Shown piece after piece: positions 6,146-58,882 of a DNA stretch of 64,000 nt. How positions within the stretch are numbered: position 1 is the stretch's first letter; each line of letters starts with the position of its first letter. The notes under the pieces are model-generated. The model saw only the letters and a list, made by a program, of their open reading frames with translations, ran no database searches and was not told the DNA's origin. Made by a program: the position numbers and the translations under genes. Source of the DNA: Halomicrobium urmianum (GTDB taxonomy: Archaea > Halobacteriota > Halobacteria > Halobacteriales > Haloarculaceae); contig NZ_CP084090.1 in assembly GCF_020217425.1 (NCBI RefSeq), positions 930,001-994,000 on the forward strand. The letters are read 5' to 3'.

Positions 6146-6332
6146 GAAACTGAATCATTTTTGTGGGTCCATAATACTCCCTGTCCTTAAAGTGACATTA
6201 CAGCATAACTTCTTATTCGGTGACAAGTATGGAGATTATAACGCTGCTGAAGGGGAAACCATTGGATTCTACAAGGCTATAGTTATTTGCTCTTGTTTAC
6301 ACCTTATGTCATGATAGTAGAAATAAATCGCC

Positions 6333-7547: not shown

Positions 7548-7687
7548 GTCAGTCTGAATCGGGTATTATAGGGGCATAGTCTTTTCGGGTTCTGTACCTG
7601 TGGCAGATTCCCTTTAAGATGGTTTTATATACCCGGTAGCAAGCGCTACCGAAGTCGTTATATCATGTGTTTTGGTTATGACCAGTC

Positions 7688-8788
7688 GTGACTCGTGCAG
7701 CGATATTAGTGAATGAAATCACGTCTACTTCAATTCCAGTTGAGATAGCAACTAAAGTCCACTTAGACACCAGTATAGATGTTGTGCTAGTTTCATACTA
7801 TGATAATTCAATTGATGACTTAGATCCCGATGTTAGGCAATTGGATGTGCCTATGGTGAAACTGGGCGCCAAATCACGTCTTGATTTTAAATCCTATTGG
7901 GATCTTCGCCAGCTCTGTTCAAAGAATGTGGATATATTACATACTCACCACAACTCAACTGGATCTCTTGGAAGGATGGCAATACTTGGCACTGGTACCA
8001 AAATAATCAACACCGAGCATAATGATCATAGATTCTTCTCCCATTTACAAAAGGCAACTAATTCAATTAGCTATCCCATTGTAGACACTATGGTTTATAA
8101 CTCGCAAAATACAAAGACATCAACAGGACTATACGAAAAGATATTATCGGTGCAATCAAAGAGTGAAGTCATATACAACGGCATTGATATTGGTCGAATA
8201 GATGATGCTAGAAAATCGCCAGTTGAGGTCCCCGATGGTCCAGTAATAACTACCGTTGGAAGACTAGTTGAGCAAAAAAATCACAAAACGCTACTACAGG
8301 CTTTTAAACTGATTGTAAATCAATATCCTGAAACTACACTCCTCATTGTTGGAGATGGTCCCTTATATGACGAACTCCGATCGTTGTCAAACGAACTTGG
8401 AATACAGGACTCAGTAGTTTTCACGGGTTATCTCCCACGCCGTGAAGATGTCTATAATGTATTAAAGAATTCTACTATCGGAGTTTTTCCGTCTTGGTAT
8501 GAAGGATTTTGTGTTGCAGCAGTTGAAGCGATGGCAACTGGTCTTCCCGTGGTAGTCAGCGATCTCGATGTACTCCATGAAGTCGTCGGAGATCCAGCTA
8601 TATTTGCCGATCCAAGCGATCCAGTCTCTTTTGAAATAGCGATCAAAGATCTACTACAGAGTCCCGAAAGAAGAGAAAGATTAGGTAGAAAAGCTAAGGA
8701 CAGAGCTCGCTCTACTTTCTCACTCGAGGACACCGTCCGTGAATATTATAGTGTCTATAGAGAGATGGCTGAAACGTCGAACCAATGA
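7688..8788 (+). CDS. GT4-family glycosyltransferase
   Basis: A 366-residue GT-B enzyme. The donor domain is clear: ITTVGRLVEQKNHKTLLQAFKLI, LLIVGDGPLYDELRSL, VVFTGYLPRREDVYNVL and SWYEGFCVAAVEAMATGLPVVVSDL. It starts at a GTG; the ATG ten bases upstream is out of frame. A short hairpin (CGGTAGC/GCTACCG, 7634-7651) follows the TATA-like string TTTTATAT and may lie in the leader. The stop codon overlaps the next start (ATGA at 8785), so it is translationally coupled to the downstream phosphatase-superfamily gene. It is AT-rich, unlike the gene it is coupled to. Confidence 0.87.
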   Translation: MTRAAILVNEITSTSIPVEIATKVHLDTSIDVVLVSYYDNSIDDLDPDVRQLDVPMVKLGAKSRLDFKSYWDLRQLCSKNVDILHTHHNSTGSLGRMAILGTGTKIINTEHNDHRFFSHLQKATNSISYPIVDTMVYNSQNTKTSTGLYEKILSVQSKSEVIYNGIDIGRIDDARKSPVEVPDGPVITTVGRLVEQKNHKTLLQAFKLIVNQYPETTLLIVGDGPLYDELRSLSNELGIQDSVVFTGYLPRREDVYNVLKNSTIGVFPSWYEGFCVAAVEAMATGLPVVVSDLDVLHEVVGDPAIFADPSDPVSFEIAIKDLLQSPERRERLGRKAKDRARSTFSLEDTVREYYSVYREMAETSNQ

Positions 8789-10401: not shown

Positions 10402-11846
10402 ACGTCGTCCTCGTCGTCATGGACACCGCACGAGCGGACGTCCTGGAATCCGTACTGTCGTCTCCTGCTACCTTCACCGGGACACAGACGAAGGGTGGCA
10501 CTTACTTCAACCAGTCCTTCGCGTCTGCGCCGTGGACGCTCCCATCTCACGCTTCTCTGTTCACCGGAACGACACCTTCGAAACACGGTGCCCACGCAGG
10601 CCACAAACACCTCAGTAACCACCACGCAACGCTGGCGGAAATCCTCGCAAACGAGGGGTACGAGACCGTCGCCGTCTCGAACAACACCTGGATCAGCGAG
10701 GAGTTCGGCTTCGACCAGGGATTCAAGACGTTCTACAAGACGTGGCAGTACGTCCAGTCCGAGACTGACCTCGGGCGGGTCGCCCGCCAAGAAGAGGGGA
10801 TCGACAAACTCAGGAAAGGGCTCAGAGCGCTGTTCGACGGCAATCCGGTTACGAACTTCGCGAACGCGGTTTACGGACAGTTCTTCAGGAAAACAGAAGA
10901 CGACGGTGCCGCCCGTACGAACGAGTGGATCGAAGACTGGCTGGCGAGCAGGGACGATATGCGTCCGTTCTTCCTGTTCGTCAACTATCTCGAACCACAC
11001 CTCGAGTACCGGCCCCCGAGGGACCGCGCGATCGAACACCTCCCCGACGATGTCACTTACGAGGAAGCGATGGACGTTCCACAGGACGCATGGGACTACA
11101 TCGCCGGGACAGTCGAGATGACGGGGAAAGATTTCGAGATCCTCCGTTCACTCTACCGGGCAGAGATTTCGTACGTCCATGAGCGGGTTGAGGGCGTCGT
11201 CGAGATGCTCAAAGGCGCTGACGAATGGGAGGACACCCTGCTCGTCGTCACTGGAGATCATGGAGAGAACATCGGCGAGCACGGTCTAATGGATCACCAG
11301 TACGCTCTCTATGACACCCTCCTTCACGTTCCGTTGTTCGTCCACGGCGGCCCCTTCGGAGGCGGGGAAATCGACGACATCGTGCAACTCATCGACATCC
11401 CACCGACGATCCTCGACGTCCTCGACGTCGACGCGCCGGACGCTCGCGAGCAGTTTCAGGGGATTTCTTTCCACCCCGATGCCGGAGAGACACGTGAACA
11501 CGCAATATCGGAGTATCTGGCCCCACAGCCGTCGATGGACGCGATCGAAGAACGGGTCGGGGAACTCCCAAACGACGTTCGCGAGTACGACCGTTCGCTC
11601 AGAGCGATCCGCACGGGGGAGTACAAGTACATCCGCGGGTCCGACGGTTCGGAGGAACTCTACGACGTCCGGAACGATCCGGACGAAACGGACGACGTCG
11701 CGGATACGCATGACGACATCGTCGACGAACTAGCCGCTCAACTAGATGAGTGGCTCACCTCATTCAATCACGCGGATACTGCCGACAATGTATCGATGAA
11801 CGAGGATACGAAGGCTCGGCTCGAGGACCTCGGCTATCTACAGTAA
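10398..11846 (+). CDS. Sulfatase-fold (alkaline phosphatase superfamily) protein with Thr nucleophile
   Basis: A 482-residue protein with VVLVVMDTARADVLESV (Asp9) and the active-site sequence APWTLPSHASLFTG. Thr47 occupies the position where sulfatases have the Cys/Ser converted to formylglycine. Later motifs LLVVTGDHGENIGEHGLMDHQYALYD and IQLIDIPPTILDVL belong to the same fold. The C-terminus GEYKYIRGSDGSEELYDVRNDPDETDDVAD is typical of sulfatase-like proteins. It is coupled by ATGA overlap to the gene before it. Its last 9 bases overlap the convergent GT4 gene. A phospho-transfer or hydrolase role on a glycan is inferred from context only. Confidence 0.83.
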   Translation: MNVVLVVMDTARADVLESVLSSPATFTGTQTKGGTYFNQSFASAPWTLPSHASLFTGTTPSKHGAHAGHKHLSNHHATLAEILANEGYETVAVSNNTWISEEFGFDQGFKTFYKTWQYVQSETDLGRVARQEEGIDKLRKGLRALFDGNPVTNFANAVYGQFFRKTEDDGAARTNEWIEDWLASRDDMRPFFLFVNYLEPHLEYRPPRDRAIEHLPDDVTYEEAMDVPQDAWDYIAGTVEMTGKDFEILRSLYRAEISYVHERVEGVVEMLKGADEWEDTLLVVTGDHGENIGEHGLMDHQYALYDTLLHVPLFVHGGPFGGGEIDDIVQLIDIPPTILDVLDVDAPDAREQFQGISFHPDAGETREHAISEYLAPQPSMDAIEERVGELPNDVREYDRSLRAIRTGEYKYIRGSDGSEELYDVRNDPDETDDVADTHDDIVDELAAQLDEWLTSFNHADTADNVSMNEDTKARLEDLGYLQ

Positions 11847-12926
11847 TTCCCGTAGGATTTCCGTCGTCTCTTCCGCTGTCTCTCGCCATTGGAATCGCTC
11901 CACGACCGTCCTACATCCGTTCTCCCCGAGGGTATCGGCCTCGTCGAGGACTCGCCGCAGTGCAGCCGCATATCTGTTGATGTCGCCGACCGGTACCGTC
12001 TCCCCGCCTTTCTGCACAATCGGCGCCGTATGTTTTAAGTAACTCGACACCACTGGAACCCCGGACGCGAACGCCTCCAGCACGGTCCGCGGTAACCCTT
12101 CAGCCCGACTGGGCAACACCAACGCATTGCCGGAACGATACACTGCGGGCATTTCGTCGTAGGGGACCTGTCCCAGAAACGTCACAGTGCTCTCGTCGGC
12201 CATCGATTCAAGTTCGCCTCGCAATGGACCGTCCCCGACGACGTAGAGGTGGACATCCATCTCCTCGGACAACTGCGACACTGCCTGTATCGCGTCCTGT
12301 GGTCGCTTTCCGTCCACCAACCGTCCTACGAACAGCACCACCGGCCCATCGTGCTTAATCAAGTCACTTTCCTCACCGTCGGGTGTGAACCGCTCCGTAT
12401 CGACCCCATTCGGGACGACTTCGATGCGCGAGTTCACACCGAACTCCTGGACGCGTTCCCGGTCCTCGTCGGTATAACAGAACATTACGTCTGCTTGATT
12501 AAACGTCCACCGCCCTAGACTCCGAAGGTACAGATCAAACAACCATTCGGGGGCGTTTTGCGAGTACAACCCGTGGTTCGTAATTGCCAGTGGAACGTCG
12601 CCTAGCCGCCGCTTCAGTGCAGCCAGGTTCGTCGAGAAGTATAGGTGCGAGTGGGCGTGGATCATGTCGAACCCGGAGGCATCCCGGAGATGCCGCGCCA
12701 CGCCGGCCGATATCTCGTTCCCAAGCAACTTGACTGTCGGCGACCGACGCACCACGGTGTATCCGTCCCGCTCCTCACGTCGGGGTAAGCTCTCGTCATC
12801 GGATACGGTCAGTACGGTCACGTCGTGGCCCATCGCAGCCTGGTCCCGGCTCATCGCGTGGACGTGATAGGTCCCGCCGCCGGGAACTTCGGGATAGAGG
12901 TTCTGTGCGACACGGAGAATGCGCAT
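11838..12926 (-). CDS. GT4-family glycosyltransferase
   Basis: A 362-residue enzyme with the complete GT4 layout. The N-terminal domain contains RVAQNLYPEVPGGGTYHVHAMSRDQAAMGHDVTVLT and MIHAHSHLYFSTNLAALK. The C-terminal donor domain contains EVVPNGVDTERF, VVLFVGRLVDGKRPQDAIQAV, LYVVGDGPLRGELES, FLGQVPYDEMPAVYR and PSRAEGLPRTVLEAFASGVPVV. It is GC-rich like the two phosphatase-superfamily genes it converges with. Upstream of its ATG there is no confidently recognisable gene. Donor and acceptor sugars cannot be predicted. Confidence 0.89.
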   Translation of the reverse strand: MRILRVAQNLYPEVPGGGTYHVHAMSRDQAAMGHDVTVLTVSDDESLPRREERDGYTVVRRSPTVKLLGNEISAGVARHLRDASGFDMIHAHSHLYFSTNLAALKRRLGDVPLAITNHGLYSQNAPEWLFDLYLRSLGRWTFNQADVMFCYTDEDRERVQEFGVNSRIEVVPNGVDTERFTPDGEESDLIKHDGPVVLFVGRLVDGKRPQDAIQAVSQLSEEMDVHLYVVGDGPLRGELESMADESTVTFLGQVPYDEMPAVYRSGNALVLPSRAEGLPRTVLEAFASGVPVVSSYLKHTAPIVQKGGETVPVGDINRYAAALRRVLDEADTLGENGCRTVVERFQWRETAEETTEILRELL

Positions 12927-13272
12927 TCTTAGCGCTCCAGAGTCGAGGATATCGTCCGACTACGCTCGTGTCTCGACAATGCCCGGCCCTCGTTGGCGAG
13001 TACTCGCATCACGGAGTCCGAGTTTAGCGTCCGTAAAAAGTCTCCCGCGTTCGATCGGCTTTCAGACTTCCAGTTCGGCCAAACAACTTCTTCCTGGCGG
13101 ACTGGAAAGGCGAGGTCAGTTTCAGTCCTGCGGCTCGCTGTGCACTTCCCCCGCTCTGCTCGGTCCAGTGCTTGTATCACTGGGGTTCCCGGAACTGGCT
13201 GATGCCTTTCATCACCTAAGTTCCCGTCAGTACCCCCTCTTAGACGGAGTCTTGATGTCGGAACATCTCACC
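12927..13272. other. Gap without a convincing gene
   Basis: On the minus strand an 83-codon frame (13180 down to 12929) ends 3 bases before the GT4 start, so it could be a tiny upstream gene or the remnant of one. Its residues (ending SRHERSRTISSTLER) match no family I recognise and the composition is not clearly coding. I see no repeats here before the origin-type repeats that begin at 13273. Confidence 0.4.
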
Positions 13273-13294
13273 CACACCACCGCCGCGTATGTAA
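13273..13294 (-). repeat. ORB-like repeat, copy 1 (inverted)
   Basis: The minus-strand reading contains CATACGCGGCGGTGGTGTG, differing from the core by one base. It is the only full copy on the upstream side of orc1/cdc6 and it points away from the gene. Confidence 0.7.
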
Positions 13295-13338
13295 TAGAGT
13301 AAGAGAAAGCCGGTTGGTTGTAATCTTACCACCCCCGA

Positions 13339-13350
13339 TTACATACGCGA
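13339..13350 (+). repeat. Half ORB-like repeat
   Basis: TTACATACGCGA matches the left half of the ORB-like motif; the right half does not match. It may be a weak initiator site or chance. Confidence 0.4.
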
Positions 13351-13418
13351 TGTAGGATTATCTATCGATAGAGGGAGTAACGGCGGTATCTGCATTCTAA
13401 CTCTTGATACTGACCTAT

Positions 13419-13430
13419 TTACATACGGGG
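13419..13430 (+). repeat. Half ORB-like repeat next to the orc1/cdc6 promoter
   Basis: TTACATACGGGG resembles the left half of the motif and lies about 10 bases upstream of the TATA-like ATATTTTATT of orc1/cdc6. Binding here could autoregulate the gene (inference). Confidence 0.4.
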
Positions 13431-13441
13431 CAATGGCCCGG

Positions 13442-13452
13442 ATATTTTATTG
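13442..13452 (+). promoter_or_regulatory. TATA element of orc1/cdc6
   Basis: The string ATATTTTATT lies about 25-30 bases before the ATG at 13476, so the transcript is probably leaderless or nearly so. This agrees with the chosen start. Confidence 0.5.
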
Positions 13453-13475
13453 CGTAGTAGAATGAGTTCGATATA

Positions 13476-14699
13476 ATGCCAAGTGACGACAATCGCGATC
13501 CTCTCTTTCGGTACGACGATCCGATCTTCGTCGACGAGGACATGCTGAAGATATCACATATCCCGCAACCGGATCGCATCGTCGGTCGTGACGAGCAGAT
13601 GCAAAAAGTAGTGCGTGCCCTCAACCCGGCGATTATGGGCAGCGAGCCGACGAATCTACTCATCTTCGGAAAGACTGGAACGGGGAAGTCACTCATCTCC
13701 AGAGCCGTCACCGAACGGATGCAAGCGGAGGCCGAGCGCAACGATACCACGGTCGAATCAGTCTTCATCGACTGCGGAGAGCACACAACCGAGGTGTCCG
13801 TCGTCAAGCAAATCGCAAGCGCCCTCAACAAACCTATCTCGGGCGTCTCCGTTCCCAAATCCGGCATCTCCCAATCGGACTACTACGAGCGGCTCTGGCG
13901 CATCCTCAACACGTGCTGTGACGTCGCGGTGATCATCCTCGACGAGATCGACATGCTGGCCGACGACGAGGTCCTCAGAAAGCTCTCGCGGGCCGGCGAA
14001 AACAAGCACGTCTCGACGCCGATCGGCATCATCGGCGTCTCAAACAAGATCGACTACCCCGACGAGCTCTCTGAGCGGGTGCAGTCGAGTTTCAACCGCG
14101 ACGAACTCGTCTTTCCAGCCTACGACGCCGACCAGCTCATCGAGATTCTCGAACACCGCCGCGACGCCTTCAAGGAGGGCGTCCTCGACGACGGTGCGAT
14201 ACCACTCACCGCTGCGCTCGCCGCGCAAGATCACGGCGACGCCAGGAAGGCGATCGACATTCTCCGGAACGCCGGTCGAATCGCTCGCGACGAGGAGTCC
14301 ACAACAGTCACGGAGGAACACGTCCGTGCGGCCCAGTCGAAGACGGAGGCGGATCGCTTCGACGAACTGGTGAATGGCGCCCCGCTCCAGGCGAAGTTGA
14401 TCATCCTCACGCTCGCCCGGTTGCACCGCGAGAGCGAACAGAACGAGTTCGTTACGGAAACAATCTACAAGACGTATCGACAACTGGCCGAACAGATCGA
14501 CGTGGAACCCCGATCCGAACGCCGGGTTCAGGAGATTCTTCAGGAACAGGACTTCCTGAACGTGATTCAATCCGATCGTCGCGGTAGAGGACGCGGCAAG
14601 GGCGTCGCCTCCTATCACCGCCTCCTCGAGGACGTGAATATCGTCGAGCACGTGCTAAATCGCGATGGTCGGCTTCGGGAGCTCGTCGATACGGAGTGA
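13476..14699 (+). CDS. orc1/cdc6: Orc1/Cdc6-family replication initiator
   Basis: A 407-residue AAA+ ATPase that binds origin DNA and starts replication. Walker A is GKTGTGKS (65-72). Walker B is VIILDEIDML (Asp156, Glu157). The sensor region is IGIIGVSNKIDYPDELSERVQSSF. The C-terminal winged helix includes ETIYKTYRQLAEQIDVEPRSERRVQEILQEQDFL and a basic loop RRGRGRGKG. Haloarchaea carry many paralogues; this one sits in an accessory region and is surrounded by its own repeat family, so it may drive a secondary origin or derive from an integrated replicon. The start at 13476 fits a TATA-like ATATTTTATT at 13442. Confidence 0.93.
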   Translation: MPSDDNRDPLFRYDDPIFVDEDMLKISHIPQPDRIVGRDEQMQKVVRALNPAIMGSEPTNLLIFGKTGTGKSLISRAVTERMQAEAERNDTTVESVFIDCGEHTTEVSVVKQIASALNKPISGVSVPKSGISQSDYYERLWRILNTCCDVAVIILDEIDMLADDEVLRKLSRAGENKHVSTPIGIIGVSNKIDYPDELSERVQSSFNRDELVFPAYDADQLIEILEHRRDAFKEGVLDDGAIPLTAALAAQDHGDARKAIDILRNAGRIARDEESTTVTEEHVRAAQSKTEADRFDELVNGAPLQAKLIILTLARLHRESEQNEFVTETIYKTYRQLAEQIDVEPRSERRVQEILQEQDFLNVIQSDRRGRGRGKGVASYHRLLEDVNIVEHVLNRDGRLRELVDTE

Positions 14700-14796
14700 C
14701 CGCCTTTTTGAAGAGGTGAGGAAAAAGCTCTATGCTGTACTGTAGCCTAAAAGAGAATCTATGGCAGTCACTTTGTGACCCCGCTTTAGCCCCCCG

Positions 14797-14820
14797 TTAC
14801 ATCCGCGACGGTGGTGTGTG
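14797..14820 (+). repeat. ORB-like repeat, copy 2
   Basis: It contains CATCCGCGACGGTGGTGTG, a full match to the core, about 100 bases downstream of the orc1/cdc6 stop. It lies opposite in orientation to copy 1, bracketing the gene. Confidence 0.72.
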
Positions 14821-14939
14821 GTCCGGATTTTCCAGTAACGAATACACGCTAGTGATCGCGGGTACACCTCTACTACAGAGTACATACGGGTTCACCAGTT
14901 TCTCTGTGTTCTCACAACGATGAAACTGATCTCGTTCAA

Positions 14940-14962
14940 TTACATTCGCGACGGCAGTGTGT
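14940..14962 (+). repeat. ORB-like repeat, copy 3
   Basis: It contains CATTCGCGACGGCAGTGTG, one base from the core. It forms an inverted pair with copy 4, about 35 bases away. Confidence 0.7.
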
Positions 14963-14997
14963 CTATCCCGAACCGTCCTAGAAGCATGCTGACAATA

Positions 14998-15021
14998 CCA
15001 TACCGCCGTCGCGAATGAAAC
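14998..15021 (-). repeat. ORB-like repeat, copy 4 (inverted)
   Basis: The minus-strand reading contains CATTCGCGACGGCGGTATG, one base from the core. Copies 3 and 4 face each other across a short AT-richer spacer, the arrangement typical of archaeal origin recognition boxes. Confidence 0.7.
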
Positions 15022-15111
15022 TGACCGTTCCGAAGTTCGTCTGTGACTGCGGCGTTCCACGGTCATAGATTTCAGATCCCGAAGCTACTGACACGGGATT
15101 TCGCCTCGCTA

Positions 15112-15135
15112 GTTAGATACGCGACAGTGGTATGT
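15112..15135 (+). repeat. ORB-like repeat, copy 5 (degenerate)
   Basis: It contains GATACGCGACAGTGGTATG, three bases from the core. It marks the outer edge of the repeat cluster. Confidence 0.55.
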
Positions 15136-16141
15136 ACCTGCGCAACTCTTGATTCTAGTTTCTGGACAATCAATGGAGAGGCGCGCCAGAGCCAGGTAAA
15201 TCGTGAACCGTTGCTCACAGACCGATTTCAGCTGCTGCGGGGACGTGGGGGTATTTCCCATTTAGTTGTACCGTCACTCTCTGGTCAATCTAGCCAAGTT
15301 AGGTAACGGGCCGATGGTTTTTTCGTCGGAGTTCGACAGCTACTAGGCAGCCATCGACGCGACTGGTGGTGGCACGGTCATTATCGACCACACCAAAGTG
15401 GAGAGTCTGATAACAATCGGCCAGAATGCCGATAATGCCGGCCTGACGGTCTGGCAGCCTGATTCAAGCAACTACATCGACCAGGACGGCGACAACGACA
15501 TGTTCCGCGTGGTCAAGGACGGGAGCGAACCAGCAGAAATCCCCGGCGTGGCTTTCATCAACATCCACATCACGAACACCGACTACGCCGAGGCCGACAT
15601 TCTCGACAACTCGGCCATCGGATTCGGGCCGGGACGAACGTCGCCAGCGAACGCCTGGCGCCTAAATCGCGACGGAGGCACGGCTTGGCTTCGAGGTTGG
15701 CGGTTCATCAACTGTGAAGCGTGGAACCTCCAGGGTGGCGGCATCCAGTTCCGAGGCCGTGAGAGCGGTACCATCGTCCGAGGCTTCTCCTCGATGAAGG
15801 GTCGACTGGCGTTCGACGGCATCAATATCAGCGACGGCCTCGGGGCTGCAGACGAGGATAACGCTGGCAAGGAATCACTGGTTGCCGACTGCACGCTCGG
15901 ATGGAACGGACGACACAACTACTGTGTTGCTGGAGATGGGTACCAGGATGTTCGTTTCCAGAACGTCTACGGCGAGGGCGCATACCGCGGTGGCATCGAC
16001 ATCGAACCTGGCGGAGATGTGTATGTCGATGCGACCCTCGTGAACCCTGGCCGAGCAGCGAGCGGGAACATCGACGCGGGCCTCTCGGTCAGTTCCCGCT
16101 CGCAGGGCAACGTCAGCGGGCGGGTCGAGGTACGCAATCCC

Positions 16142-17079
16142 TGCTCTATTGAATCCGGAGACGGCGAGCGGATAGCGTCGCTGTGAAGGTCGAAGCGAAG
16201 CGGAGAGAGGAAATGTGCCTAAACTCCTCTTCCGCTTCGTTAAGCAAGCGGCGTCGCTAGCTCAAAAGCGCTGTGCTGCCAGCCCCACGGCGGTGGTGAG
16301 CGACCCGGCTGGCAACGGATTTGCTGGCTGGAAGCATCTCACGCTGCATTTTCTGCGGGTTCATATGAGCGCGAGCTACGCGGAAATCGTCGATTGGGCC
16401 AGTGAGATGGATCGGGTGCGCGCAGTCTTGCAGTTGGCCCGCTTCGAGTTCCCGGCACCCTCGACGCTGTGGCGGTCATTCGAGCGGGTGCCGACACGCA
16501 TTTGGCGCCAACTGCTCGGCCGGTCGGCAACCCGCTGCGATCCAGGCGATCACGGCGCGCTGGATGCCACGTTTATCGACCGCCAGGCGGCATCCAGCCA
16601 CTACGTTGCACGGTCGGATCGCGACATACAGACGCTGAAAACGACGGCGCTGGTCGATACAGAATCGTGTGCCGTCCTCGACGTCCACTGCTCGGCACAC
16701 TGGCCCCACGATACCCAGGTGGGCCGTCAGGTAGCGCTACGCAACACTGAGAAAATCGAGAGTCTCGCCGGTGACAAAGGCTACGACGATCAGTCGCTGC
16801 GGGACGCACTCCGTTCAGATGGCGTCCGGCCAGTGATCAAACACCGGTTGTTCGCCCACTACGACCACGCACATAACGCACGGTTGGACAGCGACCTCTA
16901 CGGGCAGCGTTGGATGGCCGAGAGTGCATTCTCGGCCATCAAGCGTCGATACGGCTCCGCTGTCAGGCCGGGCATCTGGTACAGAGAGTTTCGTGAACTC
17001 GTGCTCACCGCCGCAGTCTATAATCTCGAACAAGCAATCAAGGAGTGATCCCTACGCCGTCTGTGGATTCAATAGAGCA
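16142..17079 (+). mobile_element. IS5-family insertion sequence (938 bp) with inverted repeats and 7-bp target duplication
   Basis: Both ends begin TGCTCTATTGAATCC (left at 16142, right inverted ending at 17079) and the match extends imperfectly to about 25 bases. The flanks carry the direct repeat CAATCCC (16135-16141 and 17080-17086). Removing the element and one repeat restores the host frame as NP-SYHAVN. The single gene is an intact transposase, so the element could be active. Confidence 0.92.
16215..17048 (+). CDS. IS5-family (ISH1-like) DDE transposase
   Basis: A 277-residue transposase of normal length for haloarchaeal IS5/ISH1-type elements. The catalytic residues are visible in GALDATFIDRQAASSHY (first Asp), SLAGDKGYDDQSLRDAL (second Asp) and ESAFSAIKRRYGSAVR (Glu with the R/K spacing of the family). 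It starts at GTG 16215 within the element and stops 31 bases before its right end. It is intact while the gene it interrupts is degraded. Confidence 0.9.
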   Translation: MPKLLFRFVKQAASLAQKRCAASPTAVVSDPAGNGFAGWKHLTLHFLRVHMSASYAEIVDWASEMDRVRAVLQLARFEFPAPSTLWRSFERVPTRIWRQLLGRSATRCDPGDHGALDATFIDRQAASSHYVARSDRDIQTLKTTALVDTESCAVLDVHCSAHWPHDTQVGRQVALRNTEKIESLAGDKGYDDQSLRDALRSDGVRPVIKHRLFAHYDHAHNARLDSDLYGQRWMAESAFSAIKRRYGSAVRPGIWYREFRELVLTAAVYNLEQAIKE

Positions 17080-17674
17080 CAATCCCAGTTACCACGCCGT
17101 GAATATCTCTACCGGGCACAACGATCTGACAGTGGTTTACTCTGCGCCCGTAGGAACTCAATCGGCCGCACACCCTGTGAACCTCAACGGGTCCGCATCC
17201 AATCATATCACATAGTGTCGGACGGTGGCGGTGCTACCAGCGGCGTTATCGATCTGGACTCTGTGGACGGGGTACAACTCACTGGAACCATCAAGGAGCC
17301 GGGACCCGGTGTGCGGGTGTTCTGCGGCGGGAACCACACTGTCGACGTGACAGTGGTTGACCCCGTCCAAGGTGGCACAGGCCTCTCGGACGAATTCCGT
17401 TCTTACATCTATATGAACGCTCAGACTGGTCCTGATTCGCTTGATGATATGCACATTAAGTTAACGGGAGCGACAGTCTGGGAACATCTACGACGGCGTG
17501 CAGTCCGTCTCCGGCGGGTACAGCAACATCCGAGTTGAGGGTAATTACTACTGGTCGAATAGCGCCTATTACGTTGCTCAAAGTGGCGAGCCGGTCGTGG
17601 CCGATGTGGCTGGGACCAGTCGAGTCATGAATGGATACACATAAGTAACCAACTTAGAAAACGCTCTCTGCCAG

Positions 17675-19117
17675 ATGAAATTCAAACGGATCGTGACTAT
17701 TCTCGGGCCTTCTTTTGCACTATTACCTTTGTTGGCTGCGCCAATGCCGACGATGAACAGCCATCCCGCCGTAGAGATTGCCGGATACTACCAATCACTC
17801 AGCTTGGTTCGTGACGGATTTGTTTCGTACACTTACCTGACGCCACTTGAAAGCTATAGTGCGCTCCACCTCCACAGCATTTTGAGTTCTCCACTTCTTG
17901 CCCTGGGATATACAGCAGCGGGCCGAGTGGTTAGCTTGGTTGCAGCTGTCATTGCTGCATTTCTGGTCTACCAGCTGGCTACTCGATTCATTGGAGAACA
18001 AATGGCTCTCCTCGCACCCGCATTCCTCTGGCTCAACCCGGTATATGTCCGGCTTTCAGGGCGTTGGTGGCCCGAAACTCTAGGAATTGCACTCACAGTG
18101 GGCGTTCTCTATACTGGATTACGATACCTCGAAACAAATGATAAGCAATGGTATGTGTGTTCTCTCATCCTACTTGTACTCGGTGTCACAAACCACATGT
18201 GGGAAGCATCGATTGCTCTCCCACTGTTTATCGCATTCCTCTGGAGCAACGAGTATATGGAAGCAACTGGAGTAGGGATAACGACACTTGTTGCTGTGGG
18301 TTTGACCTGGTGGATCACCCACTTACAACCCTCCGGGGCCAGTACACTGACGCATTTTGGTGTTCATAACGATCCCAGCATACTCCTGTCACTGGACTGG
18401 TGGAACTATATTACTAAATTCCCGATCCACCCGCTACCCATCGCCCGCACTTTCTTACTTCCGATAGCAATTTTACTACTGATCTACTGTGTCTGGCGTC
18501 TCACAACGGACCGTAATCTAGAGATGGCAATTCTTGTGGCATGGCTTTTCAGTGGTATTCTAATTCCAATTGGCCTTCCTCTTGGGGCTGATAACCATCT
18601 ATACTATCTTTGGGCTATTCTCGCACCGTTCTCTATTGGGATCAGTCTCATCATCTCAGAGATCATGCCTGCGGACCACCCTGATCTCATCCCTACCTTT
18701 TCAATAACATTGGCCTCTATTTGTACTATCGCTGCCATGTATATCCTCGTTTTTGAGGCTGCAATGCTCGGCGGCACATCAGTTCCAATCGCTGGTTCCG
18801 TAGACAGTCCCCTAACTGGTTCAATCGACGGCATTGAGCAGGGAGAAGCAAAAACTGCTGGCATCGAACTGCGAGAATACGATATCGAACATGCTCAAGA
18901 TATCGTCTTCGTGGGTGATTGGGGGCAGGAACAGGCTACGCAGTATCACCATACTCCTGCGGTGAGCCGGGTCTTGATATATAGTAACGTCCTCATCAGA
19001 GACCGAGGGTTGACAGAGAATCAAGGGCCACAGTTTGCAGAAAACGAGAATGGTCTTGTTGGATGTGAAGTGATGGTAATTCGGGACGGTACCAGAATTA
19101 CTACCAAAGCCTGCTGA
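17675..19117 (+). CDS. Multi-spanning GT-C-type glycosyltransferase-like membrane protein
   Basis: A 480-residue membrane protein with about 10 hydrophobic helices and a C-terminal extramembrane domain (about 390-480). The layout resembles GT-C enzymes (PMT/ArnT/GT39-like) that use lipid-linked sugars: an early acidic loop (HPAVEIAGYYQSLSLVRDGFVSYTYLTPLESYSALH) and LNPVYVRLSGRWWPETLGIALTVG. No motif assigns a substrate. The gene is AT-rich like the 0.8-8.8 kb cluster, unlike the genes that follow. A polymerase-like or unknown membrane protein is an alternative. Confidence 0.6.
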   Translation: MKFKRIVTILGPSFALLPLLAAPMPTMNSHPAVEIAGYYQSLSLVRDGFVSYTYLTPLESYSALHLHSILSSPLLALGYTAAGRVVSLVAAVIAAFLVYQLATRFIGEQMALLAPAFLWLNPVYVRLSGRWWPETLGIALTVGVLYTGLRYLETNDKQWYVCSLILLVLGVTNHMWEASIALPLFIAFLWSNEYMEATGVGITTLVAVGLTWWITHLQPSGASTLTHFGVHNDPSILLSLDWWNYITKFPIHPLPIARTFLLPIAILLLIYCVWRLTTDRNLEMAILVAWLFSGILIPIGLPLGADNHLYYLWAILAPFSIGISLIISEIMPADHPDLIPTFSITLASICTIAAMYILVFEAAMLGGTSVPIAGSVDSPLTGSIDGIEQGEAKTAGIELREYDIEHAQDIVFVGDWGQEQATQYHHTPAVSRVLIYSNVLIRDRGLTENQGPQFAENENGLVGCEVMVIRDGTRITTKAC

Positions 19118-19143
19118 AATCTTCTGAACAGATAGCGTTCGCC

Positions 19144-19581
19144 CTACACGCCGTGTTCGTGGAAGCGGTGCAGGTCGAGTTCGACAGGCAGGTCGTCGAA
19201 GTCGTCGTCAGCTCCGGCGACGAGCGTCGCATCGCGTTCGCTGGCGAGCGCAACGGCGTACGCGTCCGCGAGCGAGATGGTCCCATCAGCCTTCACTTCG
19301 GCTGCCAGTCGCCAGTCGGCCGGCTCGATGCGCAGTCCTCGCCGTTCGAGCGCGCGGGTGTCCCGGTCAGCGACCCGCAGAGAGGATTCGGTCGGAGTGT
19401 CGTCGACGCCTTCGAACCGGGCGACGAGGTAGAACACTTCGCTGGCGTTCGTCTCAGCGAGGAATCCAGCAGACTCGCCCGCAAAGACCTCGTCGAGAAG
19501 CGTCGCGACGGTCTCGTGACCGGGTTCGTTGTAGAGGAAGGCGATGATGGCCTCAGTGTCGAAGACGTACCCGCTGCTCAT
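19144..19581 (-). CDS. PIN-domain ribonuclease toxin (VapC type)
   Basis: A 145-residue PIN protein. Acidic metal-binding residues are visible in YVFDTEAIIAFL (Asp8), ETNASEVFYLVARFEG (Glu), ISLADAYAVALA (Asp) and LVAGADDDFDDL. VapC toxins cleave RNA, often tRNA, when the antitoxin is lost. Its start overlaps the antitoxin stop by 4 bases (19578-19581), the usual vapBC order. Confidence 0.88.
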   Translation of the reverse strand: MSSGYVFDTEAIIAFLYNEPGHETVATLLDEVFAGESAGFLAETNASEVFYLVARFEGVDDTPTESSLRVADRDTRALERRGLRIEPADWRLAAEVKADGTISLADAYAVALASERDATLVAGADDDFDDLPVELDLHRFHEHGV

Positions 19582-19874
19582 TCGTCTTCTGACGGACGGA
19601 ACCGTTCAGCTCGCTCCGCTTCCCGACGCCTCTCTTCGTCTTTCAGCTCACGAACCCGCTCCAACACCTCGCCGCGTTCGTGTTCTCCGGCGTGGATCCC
19701 GTGAAGGTCGTCCGGCGACGGAACCGGCTCGATGACGATGCGGCCCTGCTCTTCGTAGACGAACACCTCGCCCGGCGTCTCGATCCCGAACTTCTCCCGG
19801 AGCCCCTTCGGAATCGTGGCCTGCCCCCTCTGGGACACGCGTACCACTTTTGGTTCGTCTGTACTACTTGTCAC
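19578..19874 (-). CDS. AbrB/MazE-type antitoxin (swapped-hairpin DNA-binding)
   Basis: A 98-residue protein whose N-terminus VVRVSQRGQATIPKGLREKFGIETPGEVFVYEEQGRIVIEPV is a canonical AbrB/SpoVT fold. The charged C-terminal tail would wrap and inhibit the PIN toxin encoded downstream. The start is a GTG lying inside the palindrome ACTACTAGTAGT, so the complex probably represses its own promoter there. Confidence 0.88.
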   Translation of the reverse strand: MTSSTDEPKVVRVSQRGQATIPKGLREKFGIETPGEVFVYEEQGRIVIEPVPSPDDLHGIHAGEHERGEVLERVRELKDEERRREAERAERFRPSEDE

Positions 19875-19886
19875 TACTAGTAGTAC
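19861..19886. promoter_or_regulatory. Palindromic operator candidate over the antitoxin start
   Basis: GTACTAC and GTAGTAC form an inverted repeat (19861-19886) containing the perfect palindrome ACTACTAGTAGT (19873-19884). It overlaps the GTG start and the likely transcription start, since a TATA-like sequence lies about 30 bases upstream on the minus strand. AbrB-type antitoxins commonly bind such sites. Confidence 0.5.
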
Positions 19887-20020
19887 CTGTTGATCTCTGT
19901 ATTACTAAAGCTATTGCAGTCAACCGATTTGCGACATATACTGATCCACGATGGCACCATGTATTGGTGAATCGAAATCAAGTACACATCGAGGAGTACC
20001 CCGGCGTTCCTCGAACGCCG

Positions 20021-51576: not shown

Positions 51577-52356
51577 ATGCAAGCTGTCGTCCTCGCCGCC
51601 GGCGAAGGCACGCGGCTCCGCCCCCTGACGGAGGACAAGCCCAAGGGGATGGTGGAAGTCGACGGGAAGCCGATCCTGACGCACTGCTTCGAGCAACTGG
51701 TCGAGCTCGGCGCCGACGAACTGCTCGTCGTCGTGGGCTACAAGAAGCAGGTGATCATCAACCACTACGAGGACGAGTTCGAGGGCGTCCCGATCACCTA
51801 CGCCCATCAGCGCGAGCAGAAGGGCCTGGCCGACGCCCTGCTGACCGTCGAGGAACACATCGACGACGACTTCATGCTGATGCTGGGGGACAACGTCTTC
51901 GACGCCAACCTGCAGGACGTCGTCAACCGCCAGCGGGAGCAGCGCGCCGACGCCGCCTTCCTCGTCGAGGAGGTCCCCTGGGAGGAGGCCTCCCGCTACG
52001 GCGTCTGTGACACCAACAAGTACGGCGAGATCGTCGACGTCGTCGAGAAGCCCGACGATCCGCCGTCGAACCTCGTGATGACCGGCTTCTACACGTTCAC
52101 GCCGGCGATCCTCCACGCCTGTCACCTCACCCAGCCCTCCGATCGCGGCGAGTACGAGATCTCCGACGCCGTCGACCTGCTGATCAAGAGCGGCCGCACC
52201 ATCGACGCCATCCGGATGGACGGCTGGCGCGTCGACGTCGGCTACCCCGAGGACCGGGACAAGGCCGAGCGCCTGCTCTCGGAGGGCGTCGAGGTCGAGG
52301 TCGAGGACGAGGAGAACGGCGACGCCGAGGCAGAGACCGCCGAGACGTCCGAGTGA
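51577..52356 (+). CDS. aglF: UTP-glucose-1-phosphate uridylyltransferase (AglF-like)
   Basis: A 259-residue sugar-nucleotidyltransferase: MQAVVLAAGEGTRLRPLTEDKPKGMVEVDGKPIL (nucleotide-binding loop and Lys), FMLMLGDNVFDANL (metal Asp), VVEKPDDPPSNLVMTGFYTFTP. The start at 51577 is chosen because MQAVVLAAG is the canonical opening. With the divergent dehydrogenase it would make UDP-glucose and UDP-glucuronate for the surface glycan. The C-terminal 25 residues are a highly acidic tail. Confidence 0.87.
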   Translation: MQAVVLAAGEGTRLRPLTEDKPKGMVEVDGKPILTHCFEQLVELGADELLVVVGYKKQVIINHYEDEFEGVPITYAHQREQKGLADALLTVEEHIDDDFMLMLGDNVFDANLQDVVNRQREQRADAAFLVEEVPWEEASRYGVCDTNKYGEIVDVVEKPDDPPSNLVMTGFYTFTPAILHACHLTQPSDRGEYEISDAVDLLIKSGRTIDAIRMDGWRVDVGYPEDRDKAERLLSEGVEVEVEDEENGDAEAETAETSE

Positions 52357-52430
52357 CGTCGTCGCCGGCGTGCGGTCCACGACTCACCGCCTCCGGTGCG
52401 CTTTTATTCCGTGCCGACGCCGTGCCGATA

Positions 52431-53417
52431 ATGACGGTACTTGTCACCGGCGGTGCCGGGTTCATCGGCGGCCACCTCGCCGAGCGGTTCGTCGCCGACG
52501 GCCACGACGTGATCGTCCTGGACAACCTCGATCCCTTCTACCACCTCGACATCAAGCGCCACACGATCGATGTCCACCGCGAGACGGCCGCGGACGGCGG
52601 CGGCTCCTACGAGTTCGTCGAGGGCGACGTCCGCGACGCCGACCTCGTCGACGACCTCGTCGGGCGAGCGGACTACATCTACCACCAGGCCGCGCAGGCG
52701 GGCGTCCGCCCCAGCGTCGAGGACCCGCGCAAGTACGACGAGGTCAACGTCGACGGCACGCTGAACCTGCTGGACGCCGCCCGCGACACCGGCGTCGAAC
52801 GGTTCGTGATGGCCTCCTCCTCGTCGGTCTACGGCAAGCCCCGGTACCTCCCCTACGACGAGGAGCATCCGACGACCCCCGTCTCGCCCTACGGCGCTTC
52901 CAAGCTGGCCGCCGAGCGCTACGCCTGCGCCTACAGCGAGGTGTACGACCTCCCCGCCGTCGCGCTGCGGTACTTTACCGTCTACGGCCCGCGGATGCGC
53001 CCGAACATGGCCATCTCCAACTTCGTCTCGCGGTGCATGAACGACGAGCCCCCGGTCATCTACGGCGACGGCACCCAGACCCGGGACTTCACCTTCATCG
53101 ACGACGTCGTCGAGGCCAACGTGGAGCTGCTGACCAACGACGCGGCCGACGGCGAGGCCATGAACGTCGGCTCCACGGACAACATCGAGATCAAGACCCT
53201 CGCCGAGGAGATCCGCGACCAGCTGGCCCCCGACCTCGAGCTGGTCTACGAGGAGCGCCACGACGCCGACGCCGAGCACACCCACGCCGGCACGGACAAG
53301 GCCGAGGAGCTGATCGGCTACGAACCCACCCACACCATCCGGGAGGGCGTCTCCGAGTTCATCGACTGGTATCGCGACAACCGCGAGTGGTACGAGCCGC
53401 TCGTCCGCGAGTCGTAG
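52431..53417 (+). CDS. UDP-glucose 4-epimerase-like SDR (GalE type)
   Basis: A 328-residue extended SDR. The NAD motif is VTGGAGFIGGHLAERF, the active site is ASSSSVYGKPRYLPYDEEHPTTPVSPYGASKLAAERY (Ser and YxxxK), followed by YFTVYGPRMRPNMAISNFV and VIYGDGTQTRDFTFIDDVVEAN. The sequence also fits UDP-glucuronate or GlcNAc 4-epimerases, so the exact sugar is open. It starts at 52431, about 25 bases after CTTTTATTC, as a leaderless gene. It belongs to the aglM/aglF sugar cluster. Confidence 0.85.
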   Translation: MTVLVTGGAGFIGGHLAERFVADGHDVIVLDNLDPFYHLDIKRHTIDVHRETAADGGGSYEFVEGDVRDADLVDDLVGRADYIYHQAAQAGVRPSVEDPRKYDEVNVDGTLNLLDAARDTGVERFVMASSSSVYGKPRYLPYDEEHPTTPVSPYGASKLAAERYACAYSEVYDLPAVALRYFTVYGPRMRPNMAISNFVSRCMNDEPPVIYGDGTQTRDFTFIDDVVEANVELLTNDAADGEAMNVGSTDNIEIKTLAEEIRDQLAPDLELVYEERHDADAEHTHAGTDKAEELIGYEPTHTIREGVSEFIDWYRDNREWYEPLVRES

Positions 53418-53463: not shown

Positions 53464-53836
53464 GAACAGCCAGAAAGCCCCGGTCGTCTGAACTCCCGCG
53501 GCTCGCTGCGCGCGCTCGCTTCGCTCGCGTGCTTACGTCGCCGGGGTTCGTTCAGACGACCGCCCCTTTCAGTCCCGCCCAGCGCTGATTGGTCAACCGG
53601 CATTGGGCGGGACTGAAAGGAGCGGCGAGCTACGGGAACCCCGGCGTTCGCGGCGCTTCGCGCCGCGTGCTCGGGAGACCTTCGGTCTCCCGGTGAAGGA
53701 AGCACCGCAGTCGAACGCAGTGAGACGCGGAGCGCAACGAGCCGCGGGAGTCTCGTGAGCGGAGCGAACGAGACCTCGGAAGACGAGCGAAGCGAATCTT
53801 CCGGTGGCGTAGCTAGCCGGGGCTTTCTGGCTGTTC
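53464..53836. repeat. 373-bp element of nested inverted repeats
   Basis: Its ends are the perfect 20-bp inverted repeat GAACAGCCAGAAAGCCCCGG (53464-53483; inverted at 53817-53836). Inside are further pairs: GGTCGTCTGAAC (53482)/GTTCAGACGACC (53550), ACTCCCGCGGCTCG (53492)/CGAGCCGCGGGAGT (53738), CCTTTCAGTCCCGCCCA (53565)/TGGGCGGGACTGAAAGG (53604) and GGGAGACC/GGTCTCCC (53673). It has no coding frame. It sits between the epimerase and quinone reductase genes. A folded non-coding RNA or a non-autonomous mobile element are both possible. Confidence 0.75.
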
Positions 53837-53923
53837 TCAACTGAGGCAGCACACGTCGTACCTATTCAGTCGTCGTCTGCTAGGACCCATTCTTAAGCGC
53901 CCACGCAGTCACGTCACAACGAC

Positions 53924-54889
53924 ATGAGAGCCGTACGACTCCAGGAACACGGCGGAACGGAGGTACTGCAGGTCGAGGAGGTCGACCGGCCCGAACCCGG
54001 CGCGGACGAACTGCTCGTCGAGGTCGCCGCGGCGGGCGTGAACCCGGTGGACACGTACTTCCGGGACGGATCCTACGAGCCCGTCGACGTGCCGTTCACG
54101 CCGGGCGTGGACGTCGCGGGCACCGTCGCCGCCGTCGGTGACGCGGTCGAGGGCTTCGACGAGGGCGACCGCGTGTTCGGCACCGGCATCGGCAACGGCG
54201 GCCACCAGGGCGCCTACGCCGAGTACGCGACGATCCCGGACGACCGCGTGGTCCACCTGTCCGACGAGGCCGACCTGACCGAGGCGGGCGCGGCGGGCGT
54301 CGTCGCGGGCACGGCCTGGCGGTCGCTGATCGACCACGCCGACCTCGACCCGGCGGAGTACTGCCTCGTCCACGGCGGCTCCGGCGGCGTCGGCCACGCG
54401 GCCGTCCAGATCGCGGACGCCGTCAGCGCGCGGACGGTCACGACGGCGAGCGAGCAGTACCGGGACGAGGTGGCCGATCTCGGCGCCAAGACGGTGCTAG
54501 ACTACGCTCGCGACGACCTCGCCGACGCCGTCGTCGAGGCCTCCGAAGGCGGCGTCGACGCGATCCTGGACCACCGGCTGGACGACTACCTCCAGTTCGA
54601 CGCCGACGTCGCCGCGCAGGGGGCGACCGTCGTGGGGATCGGCGAGAACAGCCCCGACCCCGGGTTCACGAACGACGGCGCGGCGCGCTCGAAGGACGTG
54701 GAGTACCAGTTCATGAGCATGTTCAACACGCCCGACCTGCGCGTCCCGCTGCGGGGCGTGGCCTACCTCATGGAGCGCGGCGACCTCTCGATCGAGATCG
54801 CCCGGAGCTACGACCTCGCGGAGGCCGGCGAAGCCCAGCGCGCGGTGATGGAGGACAGCTTCCTCGGGAAGCTCGTCGTCGAGCCCTGA
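53924..54889 (+). CDS. Zinc-independent MDR oxidoreductase (NADPH:quinone reductase-like)
   Basis: A 321-residue MDR enzyme: AAAGVNPVDTYFRDGSYEPVDVPFTPGVDVAGTVAAVG (GroES-like part), then CLVHGGSGGVGHAAVQIADAVSARTVTTAS (nucleotide site). The zinc-binding cysteines are absent. It ends VVEP as in qor-type proteins. It is a paralogue of the gene at 44.7 kb. A TTCTTAAG element about 30 bases upstream of 53924 supports the start. Confidence 0.88.
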   Translation: MRAVRLQEHGGTEVLQVEEVDRPEPGADELLVEVAAAGVNPVDTYFRDGSYEPVDVPFTPGVDVAGTVAAVGDAVEGFDEGDRVFGTGIGNGGHQGAYAEYATIPDDRVVHLSDEADLTEAGAAGVVAGTAWRSLIDHADLDPAEYCLVHGGSGGVGHAAVQIADAVSARTVTTASEQYRDEVADLGAKTVLDYARDDLADAVVEASEGGVDAILDHRLDDYLQFDADVAAQGATVVGIGENSPDPGFTNDGAARSKDVEYQFMSMFNTPDLRVPLRGVAYLMERGDLSIEIARSYDLAEAGEAQRAVMEDSFLGKLVVEP

Positions 54890-57337: not shown

Positions 57338-57511
57338 GACGACGATTCGGCGGCGGGCGACCAACTATCTTACTAAAGCAAGAGAATCCCGCCGTTGACG
57401 GCAGGCGTGAATCGTGTCACCTCTCTACACAACAGATGTGGTGGGTGCTACTTGGATATTCGATATCGAATCGCGGCCATTAAGTCATCGCACTGTCATA
57501 GGCTATGTATA

Positions 57512-58765
57512 GTGAACCTGGTCACAACACGCACCATCACGGCATCACTCACCAACGACCGTGAGGGTGTCGTGCGTGACCTCAATTCACTCGCTCGTTC
57601 TGGTAGCAAAATCTGGAACGTTGCTCGGTGGACCATCAGCCGCATCTGGGACCACACTGGTGAAATTCCCGACGAAGGGCCGCTCAAGTCCTACATGAAA
57701 ACCCAAGAATGCTGGAAAGATTTGAACTCGCAGTCAAGTCAGGCAATCGTCGAAGAATTGTCTGGCGCTTTCCAGTCGTGGTTCGAACAAGACAACCCAG
57801 ACGCAAACCCACCGGGCTACCGCAAAGATGGAGATGAACGGCCACGCAGTACAATCACGTTCAAAGAAGACGGCTTCAAACTGGATACGAAACACCAGCA
57901 GGTCCGTCTGTCCAAAGGTGCAAACCTGAAAGACAGGTGGGCCGACTTCATCCTCTGTGAATACGAAACCGGGCCGGACGTGGACCTCACCGACGTAGAA
58001 GATGTGCAACAGGTCCGTACCGTCTGGACCGGTGAGCAGTGGGAACTGCACTTCGTCTGTAAGGTTGCCGTTGATGCGGACGACTCATCCGGTGAGAAGA
58101 CGGCAGGTGTTGACCTTGGTATCTGCAATACGGCGGCTGTCTCTGTCGGTGACGAGACGCTGCTGTATCCGGGTAATGCCCTGAAAGAAGACGCCCACTA
58201 CTTCCGGCAGGTAGAATACGACACGGAGGGTGAAGATGGCCCCAGCAATCACGCTGCGTGGGCACGACAGAAGAAATCACGCCGACAAACGCACTTCCTG
58301 CACGCCGTGTCGAAAGATATTGTCGAGCAGTGTGCCGAACGAGGTGTTGGCACGATAGCGGTCGGCTACCCGAATACCATTCGTGACGAGACAGACTGGG
58401 GTCGGCATGGCAACAAACGCCTCCACAACTGGGCGTTTGAAACACTCATTCAGCATATCGAGTACAAGGCTGAAGAACGTGGGATTGACGTCGAGCGGGT
58501 CGACGAGTATTCGCTGGCGACATCGATCACCTGCTGTGAGTGCGGGATGCAAGCCGACTCGAACCGTATCGAACGTGGCCTGTACGTCTGCGAACACTGT
58601 GAGTTGGTCGCGAACAGCGACCTGAACGCGGCTGAGAACATGCGTGCGACGGTAACTCCGAATCCTGCACAGGATAGGAGTAACGGCTGTCTGGCCCAGC
58701 CTTCGGTCCGCCTGTTCGACAAGCAAACGGGGCGAGTAGCCCCACAAGGACAGGTCCGGCCGTAA
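57512..58765 (+). CDS. tnpB: TnpB-family protein with altered RuvC-II site
   Basis: A 417-residue TnpB of a common haloarchaeal subgroup. The first RuvC Asp201 is in AGVDLGICNTA and the last Asp370 in NSDLNAAENM; the zinc ribbon (CCECGM, CEHC) is intact. The second site reads TIAVGYPNTIRDETDWG, with Gly285 where other TnpBs have Glu; Glu293 eight residues later could substitute. A GTG start at 57512 is chosen because homologous N-termini begin near VTTRTITASL; the frame is open upstream to 57395 but that part looks non-coding. Confidence 0.85.
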   Translation: MNLVTTRTITASLTNDREGVVRDLNSLARSGSKIWNVARWTISRIWDHTGEIPDEGPLKSYMKTQECWKDLNSQSSQAIVEELSGAFQSWFEQDNPDANPPGYRKDGDERPRSTITFKEDGFKLDTKHQQVRLSKGANLKDRWADFILCEYETGPDVDLTDVEDVQQVRTVWTGEQWELHFVCKVAVDADDSSGEKTAGVDLGICNTAAVSVGDETLLYPGNALKEDAHYFRQVEYDTEGEDGPSNHAAWARQKKSRRQTHFLHAVSKDIVEQCAERGVGTIAVGYPNTIRDETDWGRHGNKRLHNWAFETLIQHIEYKAEERGIDVERVDEYSLATSITCCECGMQADSNRIERGLYVCEHCELVANSDLNAAENMRATVTPNPAQDRSNGCLAQPSVRLFDKQTGRVAPQGQVRP

Positions 58766-58804
58766 ACCAGTAAATATCCCAACGCTGTGGTGCGGTTTGG
58801 GACG

Positions 58805-58824
58805 CCCCGTCATTTACGACGGGG
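58805..58824. repeat. Right-end hairpin of the second TnpB element
   Basis: CCCCGTC/GACGGGG with a short ATTTAC loop, 40 bases after the tnpB stop. It marks the end of the element and of the expected guide-RNA scaffold. Confidence 0.7.
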
Positions 58825-58882
58825 AGGTGGTCACCTTGCGTGTTCAGGCCGGCTCGGCGGCTGCCGACAGTTCTTGCGGCGG

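What the first reader, a model, noticed from the sequence alone, without database searches (positions are those of the whole stretch)
53464..53836. 373-bp element built of nested inverted repeats
Perfect 20-bp terminal inverted repeats enclose at least four further inverted pairs, two of which are nested and two local hairpins. No protein is encoded. This degree of order exceeds a simple terminator and suggests a non-autonomous mobile element or a large structured RNA, possibly undescribed.
Basis: seen in the sequence. Interest (0 to 1): 0.7.

Follow-up and report, generated by a model that had tools for sequence, protein, structure and literature searches.

The report
Cloverleaf-shaped haloarchaeal transposon relic
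The 373-bp element is one of about 20 scattered, highly palindromic DNA repeats in this salt-loving archaeon, belonging to a family whose younger relatives carry clear marks of transposition, and its unusual feature is hairpin arms that change sequence from copy to copy yet keep pairing with themselves.

Summary
In detail: perfect 20-bp inverted ends at 53464-53483/53817-53836 and nested inverted pairs (folding z about -13 on both strands). It is one of at least 20 paired, diverged copies in this genome, with relatives across Halobacteriales.

Shared anatomy: T (GAACAGCCAGAAAGCCCC), a 12-bp arm X..X', box C (GCCCCTTTCAGTCCCGCCC), loop, then the mirror image with a different arm Y..Y': a cloverleaf. 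T and C are conserved. X differs in nearly every copy, yet pairs with its own X' (29 own half-units: 89% of cells paired, 38 extra pair types, versus 30-45% when slid).

In Haloarcula-type genomes, copies carry IS6-type insertion-sequence ends (GGTAGTGTTTAGTT) exactly 31 bp outside T. Of 20 such elements, 11 have perfect 8-bp target duplications; one insertion is absent from its site in a relative. The matching 697-bp IS, with an IS6-family transposase, is in this genome. So the family is a transposase-less mobile element (MITE).

The window copy has no recognisable IS ends or duplication: probably an old, immobile relic, loaded with two double-hairpin modules. What preserves T, C and X·X' pairing is open. 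No Rfam match; an RNA role is untested.

The parts
53464..53836 (.). whole preserved element (T to T'), one copy of the cloverleaf repeat family
53464..53481 (+). box T, left copy (GAACAGCCAGAAAGCCCC); with the next two bases the 20-bp inverted end
   Evidence: conserved in own half-units
53482..53493 (+). arm X, copy-specific 12-mer GGTCGTCTGAAC
53494..53549 (+). M region, GC-rich interior of left arm
53550..53561 (+). arm X', exact reverse complement of X
53562..53580 (+). box C (GCCCCTTTCAGTCCCGCCC), left copy
53581..53604 (.). loop of the central hairpin; similar loop sequence (TTGGTCAACCGG) is seen in other copies
53605..53623 (-). box C', right copy (18 of 19 pairs with C)
53624..53636 (+). 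arm Y (GGCGAGCTACGGG), different from X
53646..53698 (.). nested double-hairpin module 1 inside the right arm (approximate limits)
   Evidence: read against copies; the same kind of module is gained or lost in an orthologous copy pair
53750..53809 (.). nested double-hairpin module 2; recurs in whole or part at about 20 other places in the genome, mostly outside T/C elements
53806..53818 (+). arm Y' (10 of 13 pairs with Y)
53819..53836 (-). box T', right copy
53880..53883 (.). CTAG about 48 bp outside the right end; CTAG is strongly enriched 25-75 bp outside the ends in this genome (meaning unknown)

Best explanation
The element is an old, probably immobile copy of a haloarchaeal transposase-less mobile element. 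SHOWN for relatives: the mobile form is [IS6-type end GGTAGTGTTTAGTT + 17 bp] - T - X..M..X' - C - loop - C' - Y..M'..Y' - T' - [17 bp + IS6-type end], flanked by 8-bp target duplications like archaeal IS6-type (ISH14/ISH29-size) elements. INFERRED: it is moved in trans by that IS's 211-aa transposase, which 697-bp elements in this genome encode. SHOWN: T, C and the paired arms can form a cloverleaf whose stems follow each other without spare bases; X pairs with X' in almost every copy while the X sequence turns over. INFERRED: the window copy descends from such an insertion, lost its outer IS ends and target duplication by mutation, and gained two hairpin modules. WHY the T-C frame and arm pairing outlast the IS ends is not settled: selection on a hairpin or four-way-junction DNA structure, selection during mobility, or arm-correcting replication.
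For: Own-genome copies: over 100 local matches; 34 T sites with at most 1 mismatch against 0 for the reversed pattern; 20 paired elements. IS ends exactly 31 bp outside T at about 50 ends. TSD: 11 of 20 elements with 8/8, 12 of 20 with at least 7/8, against 0.5% in mismatched pairs; offset scan peaks at 31/31 and its neighbours. Autonomous IS in the own genome with the same ends at 691-697 bp spacing, transposase IS6 family by NCBIfam NF033587, E 6e-53. Same insertion filled in two species and no element in a third. Arm covariation: 29 own half-units, 89.4% paired, 38 extra pair types, 110 double-change cells, against 30-45% paired when slid; 0 of 10000 permutations. Degenerate IS end in register at a few own copies (L020 and L176 ends score above every control offset).
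Against: The window copy has no recognisable IS end and no TSD, and the 49 element pairs without IS ends show no clear TSD signal at any offset. That class could have spread by another route. T is conserved between own copies (14.3 of 17 on average, found with up to 4 mismatches allowed) while the IS ends are essentially gone, which simple neutral decay does not explain. Orthologues of the downstream gene in other genera lack the element, but the neighbourhood differs, so this is not a clean empty site.
Confidence: 0.72

Rival explanations
1. The T-X-C hairpin is a host- or element-encoded functional nucleic-acid structure (structured DNA bound by a junction- or hairpin-binding protein, or a structured RNA) that is kept by selection at many loci. 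The IS6 ends are only one vehicle that spreads it.
For: Conserved boxes with diverse but compensated stems are the signature of a selected structure. T·T' and X·X' are element-specific, whereas M·M' and X·Y are not, which argues against blind arm correction. In Halorussus single half-units without a mirror partner are seen. Pairing stops exactly at T in own-genome copies. Elements persist at the same gene junction in three species.
Against: No transcript data; no Rfam match; wobble pairs do not favour the T-to-C strand as RNA (17 G·T against 34 A·C); no fixed gene context among 20 copies by crude gene calls; the minimum-energy fold of the window copy is a rod, 12 kcal/mol better than the cloverleaf.
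Confidence: 0.2
2. Arm pairing is kept mechanically: template switching or gene conversion between short inverted repeats copies one arm onto the other, so arms drift together with no function.
For: Arms of other imperfect palindromes are known to be corrected this way (general knowledge); copies that share an X lineage show both one-sided and two-sided changes.
Against: The longer, equally GC-rich M and M' segments of the same elements are not corrected to each other (own score 22.3, other 24.7; 8 elements), and X and Y are not homogenised. T and C stay conserved in sequence, which correction alone does not explain.
Confidence: 0.2
3. E-less copies such as the window's are PATE-like: moved as single-stranded hairpins by an IS200/IS605-type enzyme, leaving no target duplication.
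For: No clear TSD in E-less copies; hairpin-bearing half-units; PATEs exist in the haloarchaeon Haloquadratum (PMC3119063).
Against: PATEs lack terminal inverted repeats, but this copy has perfect ones. The only T boxes in the window are those of the element itself, none near the TnpB gene at 57395-58765.
Confidence: 0.07
4. A simple transcription terminator or ordinary intergenic hairpin.
For: Lies 47 bp after one gene and 88 bp before the next, same strand.
Against: Size, nested order, z of -13, multicopy family and conserved T/C boxes; no common orientation to genes.
Confidence: 0.01

Closest known systems
MITEs of archaeal IS6-type insertion sequences (ISH14/ISH29 group; ISfinder entry MITEHarch3 is named as an IS6-family MITE in PMC6807381)
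   Same: Short, no transposase gene, IS6-type ends, 8-bp target duplication, autonomous partner of the right size in this genome; ends and duplication shown for the E-bearing relatives.
   Different: Cloverleaf interior with conserved T/C boxes, copy-specific covarying arms, nested hairpin modules, and an E-less class (including the window copy) that keeps the interior but not the IS ends. I could not see the MITEHarch3 sequence, so identity with it is not excluded.
PATEs and SMRs of Haloquadratum walsbyi (PMC3119063)
   Same: Small transposase-free haloarchaeal repeats; PATEs carry palindromes.
   Different: PATEs lack terminal inverted repeats and are IS605-related; SMRs lack target duplication and transposon-like ends. 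The mobile members here have both TIR and TSD.
REP/BIME palindromic repeats of bacteria
   Same: The 55-60 bp double-hairpin modules resemble REP doublets in size and scatter (from general knowledge).
   Different: No REP-associated tyrosine transposase was looked for; no sequence comparison was made.

Membership tests
T-X-C cloverleaf repeat family (defined here) | T box, X..X' 12-bp arm, C box, mirrored half | tested here: met
   window X 12/12 paired, Y 10/13, C 18/19, T 18/18
T-X-C cloverleaf repeat family (defined here) | dispersed copies in the same genome and relatives | tested here: met
MITE of archaeal IS6-type element | short and without transposase gene | tested here: met
MITE of archaeal IS6-type element | terminal inverted repeats shared with an autonomous IS (window copy) | tested here: not met
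   no recognisable IS end at -31 of either T in the window copy; met for about 50 ends of relatives
MITE of archaeal IS6-type element | 8-bp target duplication (window copy) | tested here: not met
   met in 11 of 20 E-bearing relatives
MITE of archaeal IS6-type element | empty site for the family | tested here: met
   one E-bearing insertion present in G007 and G053, absent in G039; the G039 site differs by small indels
MITE of archaeal IS6-type element | mobilisation in trans by the transposase | not testable with these tools
   needs a transposition assay
PATE (IS605-derived) | no terminal inverted repeats | tested here: not met
   perfect 20-bp inverted ends
Known structured RNA family | match to an Rfam model | tested here: not met
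   no match in the element at gathering score; only hits far below threshold, E 0.003, to a microRNA model
Structured RNA (any) | discrete transcript | not testable with these tools
   no expression data
Structured RNA (any) | G·U-biased pair substitutions on one strand | tested here: inconclusive
   17 G·T/T·G against 34 A·C/C·A on the T-to-C strand, p 0.02, slight bias to the opposite strand

The most novel reading that the evidence does not exclude
The T-X-C hairpin, single or mirrored into a perfect four-way junction, is a selected nucleic-acid module of Halobacteria that works as a structure rather than a sequence, with two conserved boxes and freely turning-over arms. It is spread by IS6-type transposition in some lineages and retained without it in others, like the window's.
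Probability: 0.22. Interest if true: 0.75.

Novelty: new variant of a known kind. Interest (0 to 1): 0.48.

Why it matters
MITEs are usually seen as decaying passengers. Here a MITE family keeps conserved boxes and arm pairing through near-complete sequence turnover of the arms, and keeps them in copies whose transposon ends are gone. That makes a general question testable in culturable archaea: whether long inverted repeats in genomes are held by selection on DNA or RNA structure or by an arm-copying mutation process. It also explains a class of unannotated palindromic intergenic DNA in haloarchaeal genomes, and shows palindromes nesting inside palindromes (MITE, arms, double-hairpin modules).

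Tried and rejected
Rfam, at gathering score and permissively: nothing credible. Phage records: no match. Plasmids: only partial matches, in haloarchaeal plasmids. A transposase between two T boxes: the one long pair (L102, 1.6 kb) encloses an ordinary enzyme gene, an oxidoreductase by my reading. Literature for the T box letters: none; no paper found on this family or on haloarchaeal IS6 MITEs beyond the mention of MITEHarch3. Nucleotide search of the window's downstream flank in the genus: no orthologue, so no empty site for this copy; protein orthologues in other genera have no T box nearby, but the context differs. TSDs in E-less copies: none convincing. Rod structure as the maintained fold: disfavoured, because M·M' is not element-specific. 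My first forced-cloverleaf energy run had conflicting constraints and was repeated correctly.

Full report
OBSERVATION. The element at 53464-53836 is as described. Perfect 20-bp inverted ends enclose several further inverted pairs, and the single strand folds far better than shuffled sequence on both strands (z -13.0 and -13.2). It lies 47 bp behind an NAD-dependent epimerase gene (52353-53417) and 88 bp before a zinc-type alcohol dehydrogenase/quinone reductase-like gene (53924-54889), same strand.

COPIES. The window lies in a 4.25-Mb haloarchaeal genome (G000, C1:930001-994000). A search with the element finds over 100 local matches. The 14-mer AACAGCCAGAAAGC with at most one mismatch occurs 34 times, against 0 for the reversed control. 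I resolved 20 paired elements of 113 to 488 bp. Relatives occur in two other species of the genus, in other genera of the family and across Halobacteriales, with up to about 80 matches of an 11-base part of T per genome.

ANATOMY. Reading copies side by side gives one plan. A half-unit is T (AACAGCCAGAAAGCCCC), X (12 bp), M (GC-rich, variable length), X' (reverse complement of X), C (GCCCCTTTCAGTCCCGCCC). A full element is one half-unit, a loop, and a second half-unit in inverted orientation with its own arm Y. T pairs T', C pairs C', X pairs X', Y pairs Y', with no spare bases between the stems: a cloverleaf. In the window copy: T 18/18, X 12/12, C 18/19, Y 10/13.

COVARIATION. In 29 own-genome half-units all twelve X pairs vary and mostly stay paired: 89.4% of cells are standard pairs, with 38 extra pair types and 110 cells changed on both sides. 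Sliding the partner by 1-3 bases gives 30-45% paired and 20-26 double-change cells. X matches its own X' at 10.5 of 13 positions but other copies' X' at 5.8; 0 of 10000 permutations reach this. Over all genomes 109 distinct arm pairs hold 101 different X sequences, 84 of them pairing at 11 or 12 of 12 (arms under 7/12 were left out). T and C are 90-100% conserved at most positions, with the caveat that copies were found by similarity to T and C. The T arms are also weakly element-specific (51 of 20000 permutations). By contrast M with M' and X with Y are not element-specific (only 8 elements). So what is preserved is the local arm and the outer stem, not the long rod, although the rod is the calculated optimum of the window copy (-246.6 against -234.2 kcal/mol). 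Several other own copies have the X arm in their optimum fold.

MOBILITY. In copies from Haloarcula-type genomes the sequence GGTAGTGTTTAGTT stands exactly 31 bp outside T (about 50 ends). Among 20 elements with both such ends, 11 have perfect 8-bp flanking duplications and 12 have at least 7 of 8, against 0.5% in mismatched pairs; an independent offset scan peaks at and next to 31/31. The same ends, at 691-697 bp spacing, bound an autonomous insertion sequence at six places in the window's own genome. The copy read in full encodes a 211-aa protein of the IS6 transposase family (NF033587, E 6e-53; Pfam DDE_Tnp_IS240, marginal). Size, TSD length and protein length agree with the archaeal IS6-type elements tabulated in PMC6807381. 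One insertion (L239) is present at the same site in G007 and G053, with TSD ATCGAGGA. In G039 the site runs through without an element, though with small local indels. The family is therefore mobile and MITE-like; that this transposase moves it is inferred.

THE WINDOW COPY. It has no recognisable IS end and no TSD. Own-genome flanks immediately outside T are no more alike within an element than between elements, and the 49 E-less pairs as a class show no clear TSD at any offset. Two own ends retain a degenerate IS end in exact register, above every control offset. I read the window copy as an old, probably immobile descendant. I do not file the copy itself as an IS6-type MITE, because two defining features were tested and not met.

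NESTED MODULES. G007 and G053 share one insertion that is otherwise nearly identical, but the G053 copy carries two extra double-hairpin blocks of about 55 bp inside M. The window copy carries two blocks of this kind (about 53646-53698 and 53750-53809). The second recurs in whole or part at about 20 other places in the genome, mostly outside T/C elements, and in Natrinema plasmids.

WHAT KEEPS THE STRUCTURE. T is well conserved between own copies while the neighbouring IS ends are nearly erased, so plain neutral decay is not enough. Arm correction by template switching predicts that M and M' be corrected too, and they are not. Selection on a DNA or RNA structure fits best in pattern but lacks any functional evidence: no Rfam family, no common gene context, and wobble counts that if anything point to the opposite strand (17 G·T against 34 A·C). 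I leave this open.

VERDICT. A real, well-ordered element; a known kind (MITE) with an unusual interior, not described in the literature I could search. ISfinder's MITEHarch3 could not be compared.

Noticed in passing
own-genome copies, 25-75 bp outside T (e.g. window 53880): CTAG, rare elsewhere in these flanks, is strongly enriched 25-75 bp outside the element ends (often CTAGGAA); nearly all distances from T are multiples of 3 (36, 39, 45, 48, 51, 57, 60, 72, 75). Unexplained; the background in ordinary intergenic DNA was not measured.
   Followed up: partly
window 57395-58765 and 58650-58825: TnpB gene (OrfB_IS605, Cas12f1-like TNB) with an Rfam sot0042 match overlapping its 3' end, i.e. 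probably an IS605-type element with its overlapping RNA.
   Followed up: no
window 1-20000: GC falls to 43-57% with many CTAG sites, against 64-73% further on: possibly an integrated foreign region.
   Followed up: no
L277 (G129), L068, L110, L092, L180: Tandem arrays of the outer end (T plus 28-40 bp), 45-bp period in Haloarcula-type and 54-57 bp in Halorussus-type genomes, up to 7 copies, on the outer side of a half-unit.
   Followed up: partly
L110, L092, L277, L278: Single half-units without a mirror partner, followed by tandem GTGTCACCGG..CCCGGTGG repeats, in Halorussus-type genomes.
   Followed up: no
L102:6005-7664: Two inward-facing half-units bracket a single enzyme gene (oxidoreductase by my reading) as if it sat in the loop.
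   Followed up: no
L174, L263, L265, L266, L267: A variant whose central loop is replaced by a conserved, structured block of about 250 bp (..CGCAGCCCTGCCCTTCCCC..GGGGAGG..), at the same gene junction in three species of the genus; no Rfam match.
   Followed up: partly
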